Below are positions 55,579 to 64,000 of a stretch of DNA of 64,000 nucleotides, one piece after another. Below the pieces are notes generated by a model. That model was not told the DNA's origin, searched no databases, and worked only from the letters and a program-made list of their open reading frames with translations. The stretch's first letter is position 1; each line of letters opens with the position of its first letter. The DNA comes from an uncultured Tateyamaria sp. Lineage in GTDB: Bacteria; Pseudomonadota; Alphaproteobacteria; Rhodobacterales; Rhodobacteraceae. The stretch lies in assembly GCF_947504105.1 (NCBI RefSeq), contig NZ_CANNGP010000003.1, positions 1 to 64,000 of the forward strand. Reading direction: 5' to 3'. A program made the translations under genes and the position numbers.

Positions 55579-55793
55579 GTGGCCCTCTCTCGACTTTTCA
55601 TCTTGCCGCCGATGACTGTGCGGCGGAATTGTATGCTGCACCAGCCCTTTGTTCCGCAGTTGCATATTTTTTAGTCGCATCGCCCAACTCTTGGGATGAC
55701 AGCCCCGAACACTGCGACATCCCGCTGCGCCCAAGATCGCTGTGAATGGATCAGTCGAGCAACTTAACCCACCACGGTCCGGTGACCAAAAAC

Positions 55794-56366
55794 ATGAAAA
55801 TAGCAGTCATTGAACCTGACCCGGACCGCGCCCGCGACATCATCGACGCGCTGATGGAGGGCGGCTGGACCGATGTGGTCGTTCTGGGTGATGTAACAGG
55901 GCTCGCGCGCAAGCTGGCCGCGCTCGACCCGGACCTTGTTCTGATTGATCTGGCCAATCCCAGCCGGGATGCGCTGGAACAGGTCAGCGTCGCCTCCGAT
56001 GCACAAAGCCGGCCGGTTGCCATGTTCGTGGACCGCTCGGATGATGAAATGACCCAAGCCGCCGTAACCGCGGGCCTCTCGGCCTATGTTGTGGGTGAGT
56101 TGCAGCCCGAACGCATCAAGCCTGTCCTGCAAACGGCCATCGCCCGTTTCCAGATGATGAGCCAGATGCGAAACGAGCTTGAAGCCGCCAAGCAGGCTTT
56201 GGCAGATCGCAAAACCGTTGACCGCGCGAAGGGCATGATCATGCGCGCGCGCGGCGTCAGCGAAGAAGAGGCCTATGCCTTGTTGCGCAAGACCGCCATG
56301 TCGCAAAACCGCAAGGTGATCGACGTGGCCCAAGCCCTGCTGACAGCATCGGATTTGCTGACATGA
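55794..56366 (+). CDS. nasT: ANTAR-domain antiterminator NasT
   Basis: A 190-residue two-domain protein from ATG at 55794 (MKIAVIEPDPDRARDIIDAL). The receiver-like domain contains DPDLVLIDLANPSRD with the phospho-acceptor type aspartate. The C-terminal ANTAR domain is ALADRKTVDRAKGMIMRARGVSEEEAYALLRKTAMSQNRKVIDVAQALL, the RNA-binding three-helix motif. In known NasST systems NasT binds a leader RNA and blocks termination when nitrate frees it from NasS. Its stop overlaps the nasS start by four bases; its presumptive target lies at 57640-57700. Confidence 0.94.
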   Translation: MKIAVIEPDPDRARDIIDALMEGGWTDVVVLGDVTGLARKLAALDPDLVLIDLANPSRDALEQVSVASDAQSRPVAMFVDRSDDEMTQAAVTAGLSAYVVGELQPERIKPVLQTAIARFQMMSQMRNELEAAKQALADRKTVDRAKGMIMRARGVSEEEAYALLRKTAMSQNRKVIDVAQALLTASDLLT

Positions 56367-57571: not shown

Positions 57572-57639
57572 GAATTTCATCAGAATAACGGCGTTTCTTG
57601 TTGGATACTGAACATGGCGACCGCTAAGTTCATTCCAAC

Positions 57640-57700
57640 GAAGCAAAGAAGCTTCCCTCTGCTCCCAGCGATGGGGGCTCACTGAAGAGCAAAGCCGCTC
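57640..57700 (+). promoter_or_regulatory. NasT (ANTAR) leader RNA: two hexaloop hairpins
   Basis: Hairpin P1 at 57640-57655 is GAAGC AAAGAA GCTTC and hairpin P2 at 57687-57700 is GAGC AAAGCC GCTC. Both loops are six bases with A at position 1 and G at position 4, the defining feature of ANTAR target RNAs. P2 shares its loop and 3' arm with the 5' arm of the terminator at 57691, so protein binding to P1-P2 would prevent terminator formation. NasT encoded directly upstream is the expected ligand. Confidence 0.88.
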
Positions 57701-57756
57701 GTTCTGCCTGCGTACACCTCCTCCCGTGCGCATTGTGGAACGGGCGGCTTTTTTTT
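57691..57756 (+). terminator. Leader terminator ahead of nrtA
   Basis: AAAGCCGCTCGTTC (57691-57704) pairs with GAACGGGCGGCTTT (57738-57751) with one wobble, and an eight-base T-run begins at 57749. Inside, TGCGTAC (57709-57715) can pair with GTGCGCA (57726-57732). It ends 20 bp before the nrtA ATG. Together with the overlapping P2 hairpin it forms a nitrate-responsive antitermination switch. Confidence 0.88.
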
Positions 57757-57776
57757 ATAAAAAAAGGACCGACAGG

Positions 57777-59147
57777 ATGACCCGTCTCTTTACTTTTGCA
57801 GGTGCGATGGCTGCCCTGCTTGGCACGGCGGCCCACGCCGAGCTGCTCGACCTGGAAAAGGATGAGCTGAAATTTGGCTTCATCAAGCTGACCGACATGG
57901 CACCGCTCGCCATCGCCTACGAGAATGGCTATTTCGAGGACGAAGGCCTGTTCGTCACACTGGAAGCGCAAGCGAACTGGAAAGTGCTGCTGGACGGTGT
58001 GATCGACGGGCAACTGGACGGCGCACACATGCTGGCCGGCCAGCCGCTGGCCGCTACCATCGGCTACGGCACCGAAGCGCATATCATCACGCCCTTTTCC
58101 ATGGACCTGAATGGCAACGGCATCACAGTGTCCAACGAAATCTGGGAAGAGATGAAGCCCCACGTGCCGCTGATGGACGATGGTCGCCCACAGCACCCCA
58201 TCAGCGCCGAAGCGCTCGCGCCGGTCGTCGAGGACTATAAAGACCAAGGCCTGCCCTTCAACATGGGCATGGTGTTCCCTGTCTCGACCCACAACTATGA
58301 AATCCGCTACTGGCTGGCCGCCGGTGGTCTGGAGCCCGGCTATTACAGCCCGGACAACATCACCGGCCAGATCGGCGCGGACGTTTTGTTGAGCGTGACC
58401 CCACCCCCACAGATGCCAGCAACGATGGAAGCAGGCACCATATATGGCTACGCCGTGGGTGAGCCGTGGAACCAGCAGGCCGTGTTCAAAGGCATCGGTG
58501 TACCGGTCATCACTGACTATGACATGTGGAAGAACAACCCAGAGAAGGTCTTTGGCATCACCAACGAATTTGCCGAAGAATACCCAAACACCACCAAGGC
58601 TATCACCAAGGCGCTGATCCGTGCGGCCATCTGGCTGGACGAGAACGACAACGCCAACCGCGAGGAAGCGGTCGAGATCCTGAGCCGCTCGGAATATGTT
58701 GGCGCGGATTACGACGTGATCGCCAATTCGATGACCGGCTTCTTCGAATTCGAGAAGGGCGACCGCCGCCCGGCCCCCGACTTCAACGTGTTCTTCCGCT
58801 ACAACGCGACCTACCCGTTCTATTCCGACGCCATCTGGTATCTGACCCAGATGCGCCGTTGGGGTCAGATTTCCGAAGCGAAGTCCGACCAGTGGTACTT
58901 CGACATGGCCGCCAAGGTCTATAAGCCCGAGATTTACCTCGAAGCAGCCCGTCTGCTGGTGGACGAAGGGCTGGCGGATGAGGCCGACTTCCCCTGGGAC
59001 AGCGACGGATTCAAGGCACCGACGCCAGCCACCGATATCATCGACAGTATCGCCTATGACGGGAAGGCACCGAACGCCTATATCGATAGCCTGCCTATCG
59101 GTCTGAAGGGTGACCAGAAGGTCGTCGGCAACGCGGTCGAAGGTTGA
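57777..59147 (+). CDS. nrtA: Nitrate ABC transporter substrate-binding protein NrtA
   Basis: A 456-residue periplasmic protein from ATG at 57777 with an AGGA element eight bases upstream. A Sec signal peptide ([21 protein letters not shown]) precedes [69 protein letters not shown], the nitrate-binding NrtA opening. [21 protein letters not shown] and [12 protein letters not shown] follow. It delivers nitrate (and nitrite) to NrtB. Expression should depend on the leader switch. Confidence 0.96.
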
Positions 59148-59392: not shown

Positions 59393-60472
59393 ATGACCGC
59401 CATCGACCCATCCGATCTGGACGCCACAGCGCGCGAAGAGCGCAAACAGCGGAACTTTACCCGCATCAATGCCGCCGACAAATGGTTTCAGGTTCTGGGC
59501 CTGGCCTGGCTGACTCCGGTGCTGAAGGCCGCCGCGAGTGACAACCCCAAAGCGCAGGGGCGCGAAATCTGGCGTCTGCTGGGTGTGCCGCTATTGGCGA
59601 TTGGTCTGTTTCTGGCCGCGTGGGCGTCGCTGGCACCGACAGTGCAAACATCGCTGGGCGCCATCCCCGGACCGGCACAGGTCTGGGAGCAGGTTGGCAA
59701 ACTGCACCAAGACGCACAGCGCGAAAAGGAAAAGGAAGCCGCTTTTTACGTCCGTCAGGACGAGCGCAACGCCAAGCTAATCGCAGACGGACAAGCCGAC
59801 CGCGTGAAAGAGCGGGTCTATACCGGCAAGCCGACCTATTACGACCAAATCTGGACGTCGATCCTGACCGTGTTCTTTGGTTTTCTGATCGCGTCCGTCT
59901 TTGCCATTCCGCTGGGCATTGCCGCTGGATTGAGCCCGATGGTCAATTCGGCCATCAACCCGCTGATCCAGATTTTCAAGCCTGTGTCGCCGCTGGCGTG
60001 GCTGCCCATTGTGACCATGATCGTGTCGGCCACCTATGCCTCGGACGGCTGGTTCGCCAAATCCTTCCTCACCTCGGCCATCACCGTGACCCTCTGTTCG
60101 CTGTGGCCGACTCTGATCAACACCGCCCTTGGCGTGGCGAGCATAGACAAGGATCTGGTGAGTGTGTCCAAGGTTCTGAAAATGAACACCTGGACCAAGA
60201 TCACCAAGCTGGTCCTGCCCTCGGCCCTGCCGCTGATCTTTACGGGTCTGCGTTTGTCGCTCGGTGTGGGTTGGATGGTGCTGATTGCGGCCGAGATGCT
60301 GGCGCAGAACCCCGGTTTGGGCAAATTCGTTTGGGATGAGTTCCAGAATGGGTCCTCGCAGTCTCTCGCCAAGATCATGGTGGCTGTTTTCACCATCGGC
60401 ATCATCGGCTTCCTGCTGGATCGGTTGATGTATGCGATCCAGTCCATGTTCACCTTCACGAACAACCGGTGA
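59393..60472 (+). CDS. nrtB: Nitrate ABC transporter permease NrtB
   Basis: A 359-residue inner-membrane permease, longer than the usual 270-280 because of an N-terminal extension and a charged insert ([37 protein letters not shown]). Membrane helices flank the EAA-loop [47 protein letters not shown], which contacts the ATPase. It begins [26 protein letters not shown]-like sequence lies upstream. The next gene starts five bases after the stop. Confidence 0.94.
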
Positions 60473-60477
60473 GCGCC

Positions 60478-62154
60478 ATGAGCATGATCGAGTTCAAGAA
60501 CGTATCGAGGCATTTTGAGGCAGGCAACGAACGGACGGAGGTTTTGAAAGATGTCTCTCTGTCCGTGGAAGAGGGCGAGTTTCTGGTTCTGCTGGGCTTT
60601 TCCGGCACCGGCAAGACGACCCTGATCAACTTGATGGCTGGTTTGGATATGCCGTCCTCCGGTGAGGTGACGTTCAAGGGCGCGCCGATTACCGGGCCGG
60701 CGCCGGAGCGTGGCGTGATCTTTCAGAACTATTCACTGATGCCGTGGCTGACGGTGCACGGGAATGTCGGGTTGGCTGTGGATACGATCTTTCCCGGTAT
60801 GTCGCGCGCGGAGCGGGCGGCGAAGGTGGATCATTATGTGAAGATGGTTGGTCTGGGTCACGCGACCGGGCGGCGGCCTGCCGAGTTGTCAGGTGGCATG
60901 CGTCAGCGGGTGAATGTGGCCCGTGCCTTGGCCATGAACCCGGAGGTGTTGTTGCTGGATGAGCCGTTGAGCGCCTTGGATGCGCTGACCCGTGCCAATC
61001 TGGCTGACGAGATCGAGCACATCTGGGAGGCCGACAAGAAGACCTGTGTGCTGATCACCAATGACGTGGATGAGGCCATTATTCTGGCCGACCGCATCAT
61101 TGCGCTGAACCCCGATGGCACATTGGGCGATGAGTTCAAGGTGTCCATTCCGCGTCCGCGCGACCGGATGGAGATGAACCATAACGAGCAGTTCAAGCGG
61201 TTGCGTGCGGATGTGACCAAGTACCTGATGGATGTAGGGATCGAAGCGAAGGTCGAGGGCACCAAGTCCTTGCCGGATGTCACACCTATCCATGGTGTGC
61301 CATCTGCTGTCGCCGACGCGCAGAAGGGGATGATCGAGAACCGGTTCCTCGACTTCAGCCAGTTGCACAAGGTGTATCCGACGCCCAAGGGGCCGCTCAC
61401 GGTGGTTGAGGATTTCGACCTGAAGATCAACAAGGGCGAGTTCATTTCGCTGATCGGGCATTCAGGCTGTGGCAAATCCACCGTGTTGACTATGGCCGCG
61501 GGTCTAAACGAGATCTCCAAGGGCGCGATCAAGCTGGATGGTCGGCATGTGGAGGGCGCGGACCCTGAACGCGCCGTGGTGTTCCAGTCGCCCAACCTGT
61601 TCCCGTGGCTGAGCGCCAAGGAAAACGTGGCGATCGGGGTGGACAAGGTCTACCCGCGCGCCTCGCGCGAGGAACGGCAGGATGTCATCGAGTACTACCT
61701 GGAGCGTGTGGGTCTGGCCGATGCGATGGACAAGCAAGCGGCGTCCTTGTCGAACGGGATGAAACAACGGGTGGGGATCGCGCGGGCCTTCGCATTGTCT
61801 CCGAAGCTGCTGCTGCTGGATGAACCGTTCGGGATGCTGGACAGCCTGACACGGTGGGAGTTGCAGGAAGTGCTGATGGAGGTGTGGTCGCGGACCAAGG
61901 TGACCGCCATCTGCGTGACCCACGATGTGGACGAGGCGATTTTGCTGGCGGATCGCGTGGTGATGATGACCAACGGGCCGCAGGCGACGATTGGGAGGAT
62001 CGTGGATGTGGACCTGCCCCGCCCGCGCACCCGCAAGGCGCTGCTCGAACACCCCGATTACTACAATTACCGGCAGGACGTGCTCGATTTCCTTGAGGAA
62101 TACGAACACGGCGCCAAACCGAAACCGAAGCCAAAAGCCATCGCGGCGGAGTGA
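60478..62154 (+). CDS. Nitrate ABC transporter double ATPase (NrtC/NrtD fusion)
   Basis: A 558-residue protein with two complete ABC ATPase domains. First: [50 protein letters not shown]. Second, from about residue 285: [35 protein letters not shown] (Gly-Asn change in LSGG), [15 protein letters not shown]. Cyanobacterial NrtC and NrtD are separate, and NrtC has a NrtA-like tail; here both ATPases lie in one chain and no NrtA-like tail is present. The lysine-rich end ([12 protein letters not shown]) is disordered. ATG at 60478 has GGTGAG upstream. Confidence 0.94.
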
Positions 62155-62159
62155 AAGAG

Positions 62160-64000
62160 ATGACCCAAGAAATCATCGTCATAGGTGCTGGCATGGCCTC
62201 GGGCCGTACGTTGGAGCACCTGTTTGACGCGGGCGCGGACGTGAATGTCACCCTGTTCAACGCCGAGCCGCGCGGGAACTACAACCGTATCATGCTGTCG
62301 CCTGTTCTAGCGGGCGACAAGACGTACGAGGAGATCGTGACGCACGATGCCGATTGGTACGAGGCCAACGGGGTGACCTGCCGCTTTGGCGAACGGGTGG
62401 CGTCGGTGGACCGTGCGGCCAAGACTGTCACGGCCGAGAACGGCGACGTGCTGCCCTATGACAAGCTGATATTCGGTACCGGCTCGAACCCCTTCATGAT
62501 CCCCCTGCCCGGCCATGATCTGGACGGTGTGATTGCGTATCGCGATCTGGAAGACACCGAGTTGATGATGTCGATGGGGCCGCAGAACAAGGTGGTTGTC
62601 ATTGGCGGCGGTCTGTTGGGGCTTGAAGCCGCAGCGGGCATGGCCGCACGCGGTGTGGAGGTGACGGTGGTGCACATTATGGGCCACCTGATGGAGCGTC
62701 AACTGGACGAGACGGCAGGGTATCTGCTGCGCAAAGCGTTGGTGGACAAGGGCATCACGGTGCTGTGTCAGGCGAACTCCAAAGAGATCCTTGGCCAAGA
62801 CGGCAAGGTATGCGCGCTGCTCTTGGACGATGGGACAGAGTTGCCCTGTGACCTGCTGGTCATGGCGGTGGGTATCCGGCCCAACGTGGCTCTGGCGCAG
62901 GACGCTGGATTGGCCGTCGGCAAGGGCATTCATGTGGACGACCAGATGGTGACGTCTGATAAAGACATCCTCGCCGTTGGCGAATGTGTCGAACACAACG
63001 GCGCGATCTTTGGTCTTGTTGCCCCACTTTACGATCAGGCGAAGGTGGCGGCACAGACGATCCTTGGGGACGAAGCAGCATTTGTTCAAAAGGAGCTGAG
63101 CACGAAGCTGAAGGTCACCGGGTGTGATCTGTTCTCTGCCGGGGACTTTGCAGATGGCGAGGGACGCGAGGACATTGTGTTCCGAGACCCAGGGCGCGGC
63201 GTCTATCGAAGGCTTGTGATCGAGGACAATGTGGTTGTCGGCACCGTCATGTATGGCGACACCGCCGACAGCAATTGGTTCTTTGGCCTGATCCGCGACA
63301 AGACCGACATCGCCGACATGCGCGATACGGTCATATTCGGCCCTGCCTATCAGGGGGGTGCCCCCGTGGACCCTTTAGCAGCCGTTGCAGCCTTACCGCG
63401 TGATGCGGAAATCTGTGGCTGCAACGGCATTTGCAAAGGCACCATTGTGGACGCGATTGAGGGTGGGGCAACCGACCTGACCGCCGTGCGCGCTGTCACG
63501 AAGGCGTCCGGGTCCTGCGGGACCTGCACCGGGTTGGTGGAACAGGTTCTGGCTGTGACGCTGGGCGACGATTTCGTTCTGCCCGGTGCACAGCCGATTT
63601 GTGGTTGCACCGACATGACGCACGAAGACGTGCGGCGCATGATCAAGTCTCAGGAACTCAAGTCCATGGCCGCCGTCTGGCAGGAATGCGCGTGGAAGAC
63701 GGTGGACGGATGCCATGTGTGCCGCCCCGCCCTGAACTACTACCTGATTGCCGATTGGCCGCTGGAATATCTGGACGACCCGCAAAGTCGTTTCATCAAC
63801 GAACGCAAGCACGCGAACATCCAGAAGGATGGAACATTTTCAGTGGTGCCGCGCATGTGGGGTGGGATCACCACGCCGGATGAGCTGCGCGCGATTGCCG
63901 ATGCCGCCGACAAATACGACGTGCCGACCGTGAAAGTAACGGGCGGGCAGCGCATCGACCTGTTGGGCGTGAAAGGTGAGGACCTGCCGAGCATCTGGGC
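62160..64000 (+). CDS. nirB: Nitrite reductase large subunit NirB (3' end outside window)
   Basis: The frame is open from ATG at 62160 to the window end: 613 residues of an expected 800 or more. FAD/NAD domain: IIVIGAGMASGRTLEHLFDAG, then VVVIGGGLLGLEAAAGMAARG and DKDILAVGECVEHNG. Two BFD-type [2Fe-2S] domains follow: CGCNGICKGTIVDAIEGGA with SGSCGTCTGLV, and CGCTDMTHEDVRRMI with GCHVCRPALNYYL. The ferredoxin-like half domain begins near residue 575 (TTPDELRAIADAADKYDVPTVKVTGGQRIDLLG). The siroheme part lies beyond. It reduces nitrite to ammonium with NADH, completing assimilation. Confidence 0.95.
   Translation, partial: MTQEIIVIGAGMASGRTLEHLFDAGADVNVTLFNAEPRGNYNRIMLSPVLAGDKTYEEIVTHDADWYEANGVTCRFGERVASVDRAAKTVTAENGDVLPYDKLIFGTGSNPFMIPLPGHDLDGVIAYRDLEDTELMMSMGPQNKVVVIGGGLLGLEAAAGMAARGVEVTVVHIMGHLMERQLDETAGYLLRKALVDKGITVLCQANSKEILGQDGKVCALLLDDGTELPCDLLVMAVGIRPNVALAQDAGLAVGKGIHVDDQMVTSDKDILAVGECVEHNGAIFGLVAPLYDQAKVAAQTILGDEAAFVQKELSTKLKVTGCDLFSAGDFADGEGREDIVFRDPGRGVYRRLVIEDNVVVGTVMYGDTADSNWFFGLIRDKTDIADMRDTVIFGPAYQGGAPVDPLAAVAALPRDAEICGCNGICKGTIVDAIEGGATDLTAVRAVTKASGSCGTCTGLVEQVLAVTLGDDFVLPGAQPICGCTDMTHEDVRRMIKSQELKSMAAVWQECAWKTVDGCHVCRPALNYYLIADWPLEYLDDPQSRFINERKHANIQKDGTFSVVPRMWGGITTPDELRAIADAADKYDVPTVKVTGGQRIDLLGVKGEDLPSIW

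What the first reader, a model, noticed from the sequence alone, without database searches (positions are those of the whole stretch)
57640..57756. NasT antitermination switch readable base by base
Two hairpins with six-base loops of the form A-x-x-G-x-x (AAAGAA and AAAGCC) precede nrtA, and the second shares its sequence with the 5' arm of a strong intrinsic terminator. nasT and nasS lie immediately upstream. ANTAR proteins are known to bind paired A1/G4 hexaloop hairpins and prevent termination. The short P1-P2 spacing of 31 bp and the overlap give a fully defined regulatory RNA.
Basis: partly seen in the sequence, partly recalled or inferred. Interest (0 to 1): 0.72.

Follow-up and report, generated by a model that had tools for sequence, protein, structure and literature searches.

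The report
Three-hairpin nitrate switch in nrtA leader
Ahead of a nitrate-uptake operon lies an RNA on/off switch of a known kind, in which a nitrate-released protein grips RNA hairpins to stop early termination, but here the switch has three hairpins where the described ones have two, and the extra one makes it testable how the protein is passed along the RNA.

Summary
Window 57640-57655 and 57687-57700 form A1/G4 hexaloop hairpins; the second shares bases with a strong terminator (57693-57756) ahead of nrtA, behind nasT and nasS. No such hairpin-terminator overlap arose in 2000 shuffles. NasS/NasT control is known from Paracoccus.

That spacer is long: EutV loses most induction with a 14-nt linker. 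The middle hairpin is found in 36 of 38 related leaders, with G at loop position 4 in 29 of 36 (null 19%); its arms fit each other better than swapped arms (0 of 1000). It sits about 21 nt 5' of the P2 loop, where the A1/G4 partner lies in two-hairpin NasT leaders of other Alphaproteobacteria. A covariance model of the leader hits 40 of 43 family genomes with full NasT (36 of them supplied the model) and 0 of 77 without.

Verdict: new variant of a known kind. That NasT binds the middle hairpin is inferred.

The parts
55746..56366 (+). nasT: receiver-like domain plus C-terminal ANTAR RNA-binding domain (206 aa)
   Evidence: Pfam ANTAR E 5.3e-20; aligns with EutV 6wsh, NasR 4akk, AmiR 1qo0; the only ANTAR match at E 0.001 or better in the genome
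56363..57541 (+). nasS: nitrate-sensor homologue of NrtA (392 aa, no signal-peptide-like start by eye)
   Evidence: Pfam NMT1_2; matches NrtA and the nitrate/bicarbonate transporter chains NrtC and CmpC; same gene order in relatives
57640..57655 (+).
57661..57678 (+).
57684..57704 (+). P2 antiterminator: GAGC[AAAGCC]GCTC at 57687-57700, lower stem GAA/TTC with a bulged G
57693..57756 (+). intrinsic terminator whose 5' arm shares bases with P2; T-run 57749-57756
57777..59147 (+). nrtA: nitrate-binding protein of the ABC transporter, first gene of the controlled operon
   Evidence: conserved behind the leader
59393..60472 (+). nrtB: transporter permease
60469..62154 (+). nrtC: transporter ATP-binding protein (two ABC stretches)
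62151..64000 (+). nirB, running past the window end; a nitrate-reductase-like gene and cysG follow in the genome
   Evidence: L075

Best explanation
This is the nitrate-responsive transcription-antitermination leader of the assimilatory nitrate operon (nrtABC-nirB-nitrate-reductase-like gene-cysG). Without nitrate, NasS holds NasT and RNA polymerase stops at the terminator at 57693-57756. With nitrate or nitrite, NasS releases NasT, whose ANTAR domains bind the hexaloop hairpins on the nascent RNA and hold P2 together; P2 occupies the 5' arm of the terminator, so transcription reads into nrtA. Unlike the described two-hairpin ANTAR targets, this leader and its family relatives carry three hairpins in a row: P0 (strict A1/G4), a middle hairpin at the canonical distance from P2 (G4 mostly kept, A1 relaxed, loop often 7 nt), and P2. 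The middle hairpin splits a 31-nt gap into loop-to-loop steps of 22 and 24 nt, so NasT loaded on P0 can reach P2, either directly because the middle stem folds the gap away, or by a hand-over through the middle loop. Shown here: the anatomy, its conservation, its co-occurrence with NasT. Shown by others in Paracoccus: nitrate-dependent release of NasT and leader binding. Inferred: that the same happens here, and the role of the middle hairpin.
For: P2-terminator overlap and folding. One ANTAR protein and one confident leader in the whole genome. P0: A1 and G4 invariant in 38 of 38 sequence-aligned leaders; 62 cells with changes on both sides against 18.1 shuffled. Middle hairpin: found in 36 of 38 linkers (null mean 23, maximum 30), G4 in 29 of 36 (null mean 0.187, maximum 0.45 over 300 sets), A1 and G4 together 0.444 against 0.052 (maximum 0.273), summed energy -171 against -58; native arms pair better than arms swapped between leaders, 0 of 1000. 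Loop-to-loop distance from middle hairpin to P2: 15-28 nt in 36 family leaders; with a search limited to 14-32 nt, 19-23 nt in 38 of 46 family leaders and 17-26 nt in 17 leaders outside the family. Covariance model: 40 of 43 family genomes with full NasT, 0 of 77 without; of the 7 NasT genomes that did not supply the model, 4 are hit. Further hits not used to build it include three ahead of siroheme genes. NasT release and leader binding in P. denitrificans: PMC3795266, PMC5424462.
Against: No binding or transcription data exist for this organism. In P. denitrificans mutation of hairpin HII left nitrate-induced activity relatively unaffected (PMC5424462); if HII is the P2 equivalent, as its distance suggests, that does not fit a strict need for P2 there. 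On the MAFFT alignment with a fixed 7-nt loop, the middle stem alone shows no covariation above shuffles (106 of 500 reach it) and RNAalifold misses it; the signal appears only in the register-free test. 7 of 36 middle loops lack G4, 18 of 36 have 7 nt, and A1 alone (0.50) is within the null range (maximum 0.583). Of 41 complete leaders, 3 (L038, L061, L063) did not fit the P2 pattern and were left out. NasT differs from EutV at several RNA-contact positions (N173, R175, R177), as NasR also does in part. The confidence was lowered from 0.85 to 0.82 for the HII result when the report was checked.
Confidence: 0.82

Rival explanations
1. The middle hairpin is only a structural spacer: it folds away 18 nt so that P0 and P2 come within about 13 unpaired nt, and NasT never touches its loop.
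For: Loop size varies (18 of 36 with 6 nt, 18 of 36 with 7 nt) and A1 is only 18 of 36, whereas P0 is invariant at A1 and G4. Outside the family, leaders with P0 (A1/G4, stem at least 4) have a strict A1/G4 middle hexaloop in 2 of 7, leaders without P0 in 11 of 12, Fisher p 0.0095.
Against: G4, the only base-specific ANTAR contact in the EutV structure (PMC8934654), is kept in 29 of 36 middle loops and in 26 of 27 in a second, hand-anchored set without its own null model; a pure spacer would not need it. Within the family the P0 association is absent (9 of 40 against 1 of 8 strict, p 1.0).
Confidence: 0.35
2. The canonical pair is middle hairpin plus P2, as in two-hairpin leaders, and P0 is an accessory loading site.
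For: The middle-to-P2 distance equals that of two-hairpin NasT leaders outside the family; eutP loops are 24 nt apart (A29 and A53).
Against: Within the family P0, not the middle hairpin, has invariant A1/G4. In P. denitrificans mutation of hairpin HI severely lowers expression and its chromosomal replacement abolishes growth on nitrate (PMC5424462); by stated distance HI fits P0 best, but the figure was not seen.
Confidence: 0.25
3. An ordinary two-hairpin ANTAR target, with a tolerant long linker; the middle hairpin is incidental.
For: P0 and P2 carry the strict A1/G4 loops; alignment-based tools do not recover the middle stem.
Against: Conservation and arm-swap tests of the middle hairpin; published linker limits for EutV.
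Confidence: 0.07
4. The middle hairpin is a transcription pause hairpin that gives NasT time to bind.
For: Position between loading site and antiterminator; lower energy than in shuffled linkers.
Against: No reason for G4 conservation; not testable here.
Confidence: 0.1

Closest known systems
P. denitrificans NasS-NasT and the nasA leader (PMC3795266, passages read; PMC5424462, passages and section 17 read)
   Same: nasT-nasS directly upstream of a hairpin-rich leader; nitrate/nitrite releases NasT, which binds the leader. A P. denitrificans record (L076) also shows three hairpins (loops AACGGC, AATGAT, GACGAT).
   Different: Controls nasA, a NarK/NasA-type transporter, rather than nrtABC; by eye no clear U-run terminator in L076; what I read there speaks of two hairpins, HI and HII.
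EutV / eut leaders of Enterococcus faecalis (PMC3369931, PMC8934654; passages read)
   Same: A1/G4 hexaloops; last hairpin exclusive with the terminator; REC-ANTAR protein.
   Different: Two hairpins with a 5-12 nt linker; activation by phosphorylation, not by release from a sensor. In NasT the receiver stretch LVKPL of EutV reads VVGEL.
NasR / nasF leader of Klebsiella oxytoca (PMC7496416, PMC3369936; passages read)
   Same: Nitrate assimilation; A1/G4 loops closed by C:G; terminator-exclusive P2.
   Different: One-component NIT-ANTAR protein; two hairpins suffice for full binding.
Bradyrhizobium diazoefficiens NasT regulon (PMC6759348; passages read)
   Same: NasT antitermination at several leaders.
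   Different: Targets include nos, nap and nirA; hairpin number not seen in the passages read.

Membership tests
ANTAR target RNA (dual hexaloop) | Two hairpins with hexaloops bearing A1 and G4 | tested here: met
   P0 AAAGAA and P2 AAAGCC; the middle loop AGCGAT also fits
ANTAR target RNA (dual hexaloop) | Second hairpin overlaps and excludes an intrinsic terminator | tested here: met
   Shared bases 57693-57704; 0 of 2000 shuffles
ANTAR target RNA (dual hexaloop) | Exactly two hairpins with linker of 2-25 nt (curation rule for Actinobacteria in PMC8164766) or 5-12 nt (eut) | tested here: not met
   P0-P2 linker 31 nt, 25-47 nt in 37 leaders, with a third hairpin inside; the rule is met by the middle hairpin and P2 taken alone
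ANTAR target RNA (dual hexaloop) | Bound by an ANTAR protein | not testable with these tools
   Only co-occurrence: 40 of 43 genomes with full NasT, 0 of 77 without; 4 of the 7 that did not supply the model
NasS-NasT system | REC-ANTAR protein beside an NrtA-like sensor, upstream of nitrate genes | tested here: met
   (the receiver domain is below Pfam's cut-off, 26.6 against 30.2 bits)
NasS-NasT system | Nitrate-dependent dissociation of NasS from NasT | not testable with these tools
   Shown for P. denitrificans in PMC3795266, not here
Any Rfam family | Score at or above the gathering threshold | tested here: not met
   0 matches in the window; three sub-threshold hits of E 0.14-0.37 in the leader

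The most novel reading that the evidence does not exclude
A three-site ANTAR relay: NasT loads on P0, steps through the middle loop by its G4, and ends on P2, each step near the canonical 18-24 nt. In this family the strict A1/G4 loading role has moved from the middle hairpin to the added upstream one, so partner identity has shifted during evolution while the terminator switch stayed the same.
Probability: 0.4. Interest if true: 0.65.

Novelty: new variant of a known kind. Interest (0 to 1): 0.5.

Why it matters
It is unsettled whether an ANTAR dimer holds two hairpins at once or is handed from one to the next; the EutV structure paper argues for successive binding with a spacing limit (PMC8934654, passages read). 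A natural leader that exceeds that limit but inserts a third ANTAR-like hairpin at the permitted spacing is a ready-made test. It also means that two-hairpin search models with a linker cap could mis-pair or miss such leaders, and it extends the likely NasT regulon to siroheme-synthesis genes unlinked to nasT in three genomes.

Tried and rejected
Rfam search of window and leader: nothing at threshold. RNAalifold on the first alignment recovered P0 and P2 but not the middle hairpin, and pair counting on the fixed-register alignment gave no covariation for it; both stand against the middle hairpin unless the mixed 6- and 7-nt loops are allowed for, which the arm-swap test does. Further NasT leaders in the own genome: one hit at E 6.4e-8, the other seven listed at E above 1, with 150 of 1749 first-look candidates scored. 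A weak extra hit in G038 (L176, E 0.0094) has a broken P2 and by eye no terminator; I take it as chance. Sigma-70 promoter scan around the leader: none found. No structure prediction was run. Papers on triple-hairpin ANTAR targets: none seen in the listings (at most 20 titles each, out of many more), in an open-licence library that lacks most subscription papers, among them the Azotobacter NasT paper of 2012; so absence from print is not established.

Full report
1. What is in the sequence. At 57640-57655 the + strand reads GAAGC-AAAGAA-GCTTC and at 57687-57700 GAGC-AAAGCC-GCTC. Both are hairpins with six-base loops that have A at position 1 and G at position 4. The bases 57693-57704 also form part of the 5' arm of a long terminator that ends in eight T at 57749-57756; the terminator fold alone is -35.6 kcal/mol, z -7.2. 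The fold of the whole leader places the second hairpin inside the terminator and keeps the upstream ones. The fold of 57636-57710 gives three hairpins, not two: the third is GCTCCC-AGCGAT-GGGGGC at 57661-57678. Its loop is also A1/G4 when read as a hexaloop; A and T can pair to leave a GCGA tetraloop. The energy of that three-hairpin stretch by itself is not unusual (z -1.33). In 2000 dinucleotide shuffles of the leader the mean number of A1/G4 hexaloop hairpins was 0.13 against 4 observed (one overlaps two others), and no shuffle gave a hairpin overlapping a terminator; no other place in the window has that combination by the same rules.

2. Surroundings. nasT (ANTAR, Pfam E 5.3e-20; receiver domain just below Pfam's cut-off) and nasS lie directly upstream and nrtABC follow. 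In the genome the operon goes on with nirB, an open reading frame nearest to formate dehydrogenase and nitrate reductase models but below their cut-offs, and cysG. NasT is the only ANTAR match in the genome. It aligns with EutV (6wsh), NasR (4akk) and AmiR (1qo0). If the paper's EutV numbering is the chain numbering minus 2 (my reading), the R142, K143, R168 and M172 equivalents are kept, K147 is R, N173 is S, R175 is N, and R177 is K. The receiver lacks the usual lysine, as expected if NasS rather than a kinase controls it (inference).

3. Relatives. Of 120 genomes of the family, own included, 43 have a full-length NasT; one more, G021, has a fragment at a contig end. I took 43 relative loci plus the window; 41, the window included, had both nasS and an nrtA-like gene. 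A P2-like hairpin with a following T-run was found by pattern in 36, and two more were added by hand (L036, L046); L038, L061 and L063 were left out. The pattern fixed G4 and purine 1 of P2, so P2 conservation is partly by construction. The 5' hairpin was not used for selection, and its A1 and G4 are invariant in all 38 in a plain MAFFT alignment. Its stem shows 62 compensatory cells against 18.1 in shuffles, on 36 leaders. The closest relative by NasT, L046, has an altered 5' loop and fits only with a mismatch.

4. The middle hairpin. The linker between the 5' hairpin and P2 is 25-47 nt in 37 leaders (31 in the window). Its best hairpin with a 6- or 7-nt loop exists in 36 of 38 leaders, against a mean of 23 and maximum of 30 in shuffled linkers. 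G at loop position 4 occurs in 29 of 36, against a null mean of 0.187 and maximum of 0.45 over 300 shuffle sets. A at position 1 occurs in 18 of 36, which is above the null mean (0.296) but within its range (maximum 0.583); both together 0.444 against 0.052 (maximum 0.273). Summed energy is -171 against -58, best null -104. The shuffles do not allow for common descent. Results against: the sequence alignment cannot hold 6- and 7-nt loops in one register, and there RNAalifold misses the stem and pair counts are not above shuffles (106 of 500). A register-free test that exchanges the 3' halves between 36 leaders gave -200.9 for native arms against -125.4, sd 10.9, for swapped arms, 0 of 1000 as good; without the 15 rows with the commonest arms, still 0 of 1000. 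I take the hairpin as real.

5. Which hairpin is which. Searches gave NasT loci from the wider class and named plasmid records. In 29 leaders anchored by eye (no null model) the best hairpin about 17-26 nt 5' of the P2 loop is present in 27 and has G4 in 26 of these. Over all 67 leaders (search limited to 14-32 nt) the slot is filled in 63, G4 in 55. Several leaders outside the family (for example L119, L122, L129, L079, L081) have this A1/G4 hairpin and P2 but no A1/G4 hairpin further up by the rules: the canonical two-hairpin form. P0 with a stem of at least 4 pairs, sought at 36-75 nt, is present in 40 of 48 family leaders and 7 of 19 others, at 41-66 nt, 46-51 nt in 35 of 47. Outside the family, leaders without P0 have a strict A1/G4 middle hexaloop in 11 of 12 and leaders with P0 in 2 of 7 (Fisher p 0.0095); within the family there is no such association (9 of 40 against 1 of 8, p 1.0). 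The first result is small, hand-anchored and not corrected for descent.

6. A model as a test. A covariance model from 36 leaders (L053 and L057 dropped for irregular linkers) hits 40 of the 120 family genomes, all among the 43 with full NasT, none among the other 77 (with stricter filters that lose weak matches). 36 of the 40 supplied the model; of the 7 NasT genomes that did not, 4 are hit (G004, G008, G022, G076) and 3 are not (G017, G023, G068). L177 (G008) and L178 (G022) are nrtABC leaders on separate contigs. L173, L174 and L175 are second leaders in G088, G071 and G092; they precede a uroporphyrinogen-III methyltransferase gene (L173) and cysG (L174, L175), each over an NCBIfam cut-off of that name, so the regulon probably reaches the siroheme of nitrite reductase. 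These five leaders all have G4 in the middle loop. A fourth second hit (L176, E 0.0094) looks like chance. L078 (Leisingera), L111 and L118 also score well, while leaders further away score poorly. In the window's own genome there is one confident hit.

7. Mechanism. Published for P. denitrificans: NasS-NasT dissociates with nitrate or nitrite, and NasT binds the nasA leader (PMC3795266, passages); mutation of hairpin HI strongly lowers expression and its chromosomal replacement abolishes growth on nitrate, whereas mutation of HII leaves nitrate-induced activity relatively unaffected and raises the ammonium level twofold (PMC5424462). The stated distances (137 and 91 bp upstream of nasA) fit P0 and the third hairpin of L076 best by my count, but I did not see the figure and the strain differs. 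If HII is the P2 equivalent, its result speaks against a strict need for P2 in that species. Published for EutV: G4 is the only base-specific contact, the authors argue that a dimer binds one hexaloop at a time, and lengthening the linker drastically lowers or abolishes function. Combined with the anatomy here, the likely working is antitermination by NasT on P2, with P0 as loading site and the middle hairpin either shortening the gap or serving as a stepping stone. The first half I hold very likely; the choice between the last two is open.

8. Verdict. The switch as such is known. The three-hairpin form, the strict A1/G4 loop on an added upstream hairpin and the copies ahead of siroheme genes were not met in the listings of seven searches of an open library. 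I call it a new variant of a known kind.

Noticed in passing
L173 999-1059, L174 1032-1091, L175 5377-5436 (minus strand): The same three-hairpin leader stands ahead of siroheme genes unlinked to nasT in three genomes (uroporphyrinogen-III methyltransferase in L173, cysG in L174 and L175), which suggests a NasT regulon for nitrite-reductase cofactor supply.
   Followed up: partly
Upstream of NasT leaders outside the family (for example L114, L119, L122, L128): A sigma-54-like -24/-12 motif (pattern recalled) lies upstream of P2 in 13 of 19 leaders outside the family and 0 of 48 inside it, so the promoter type seems to have changed in this family.
   Followed up: partly
window 57677-57690: A fourth hairpin GCTC-ACTGAA-GAGC, also A1/G4, overlaps the 3' arm of the middle hairpin and the 5' arm of P2 and could compete with both; no counterpart stood out in the other leaders.
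   Followed up: partly
L076 5872-5940, L077 5872-5940: Paracoccus leaders show three hexaloop hairpins but by eye no clear U-run after the third, and P. denitrificans has G at position 1 of the third loop; how termination works there is unclear.
   Followed up: no
L039 and L057: Two family leaders have G instead of A at position 1 of the P2 loop (GAGGCC, GAAGCC), so A1 of P2 is not absolute.
   Followed up: no
window 57726-57776: The longest nrtA open reading frame starts with GTG at 57726 inside the terminator; the start is more likely ATG 57777.
   Followed up: no
L129 and L132 (two sites each, about 1330 and 2860 nt after nasT): Two successive two-hairpin NasT-type leaders lie downstream of the same nasT.
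   Followed up: no
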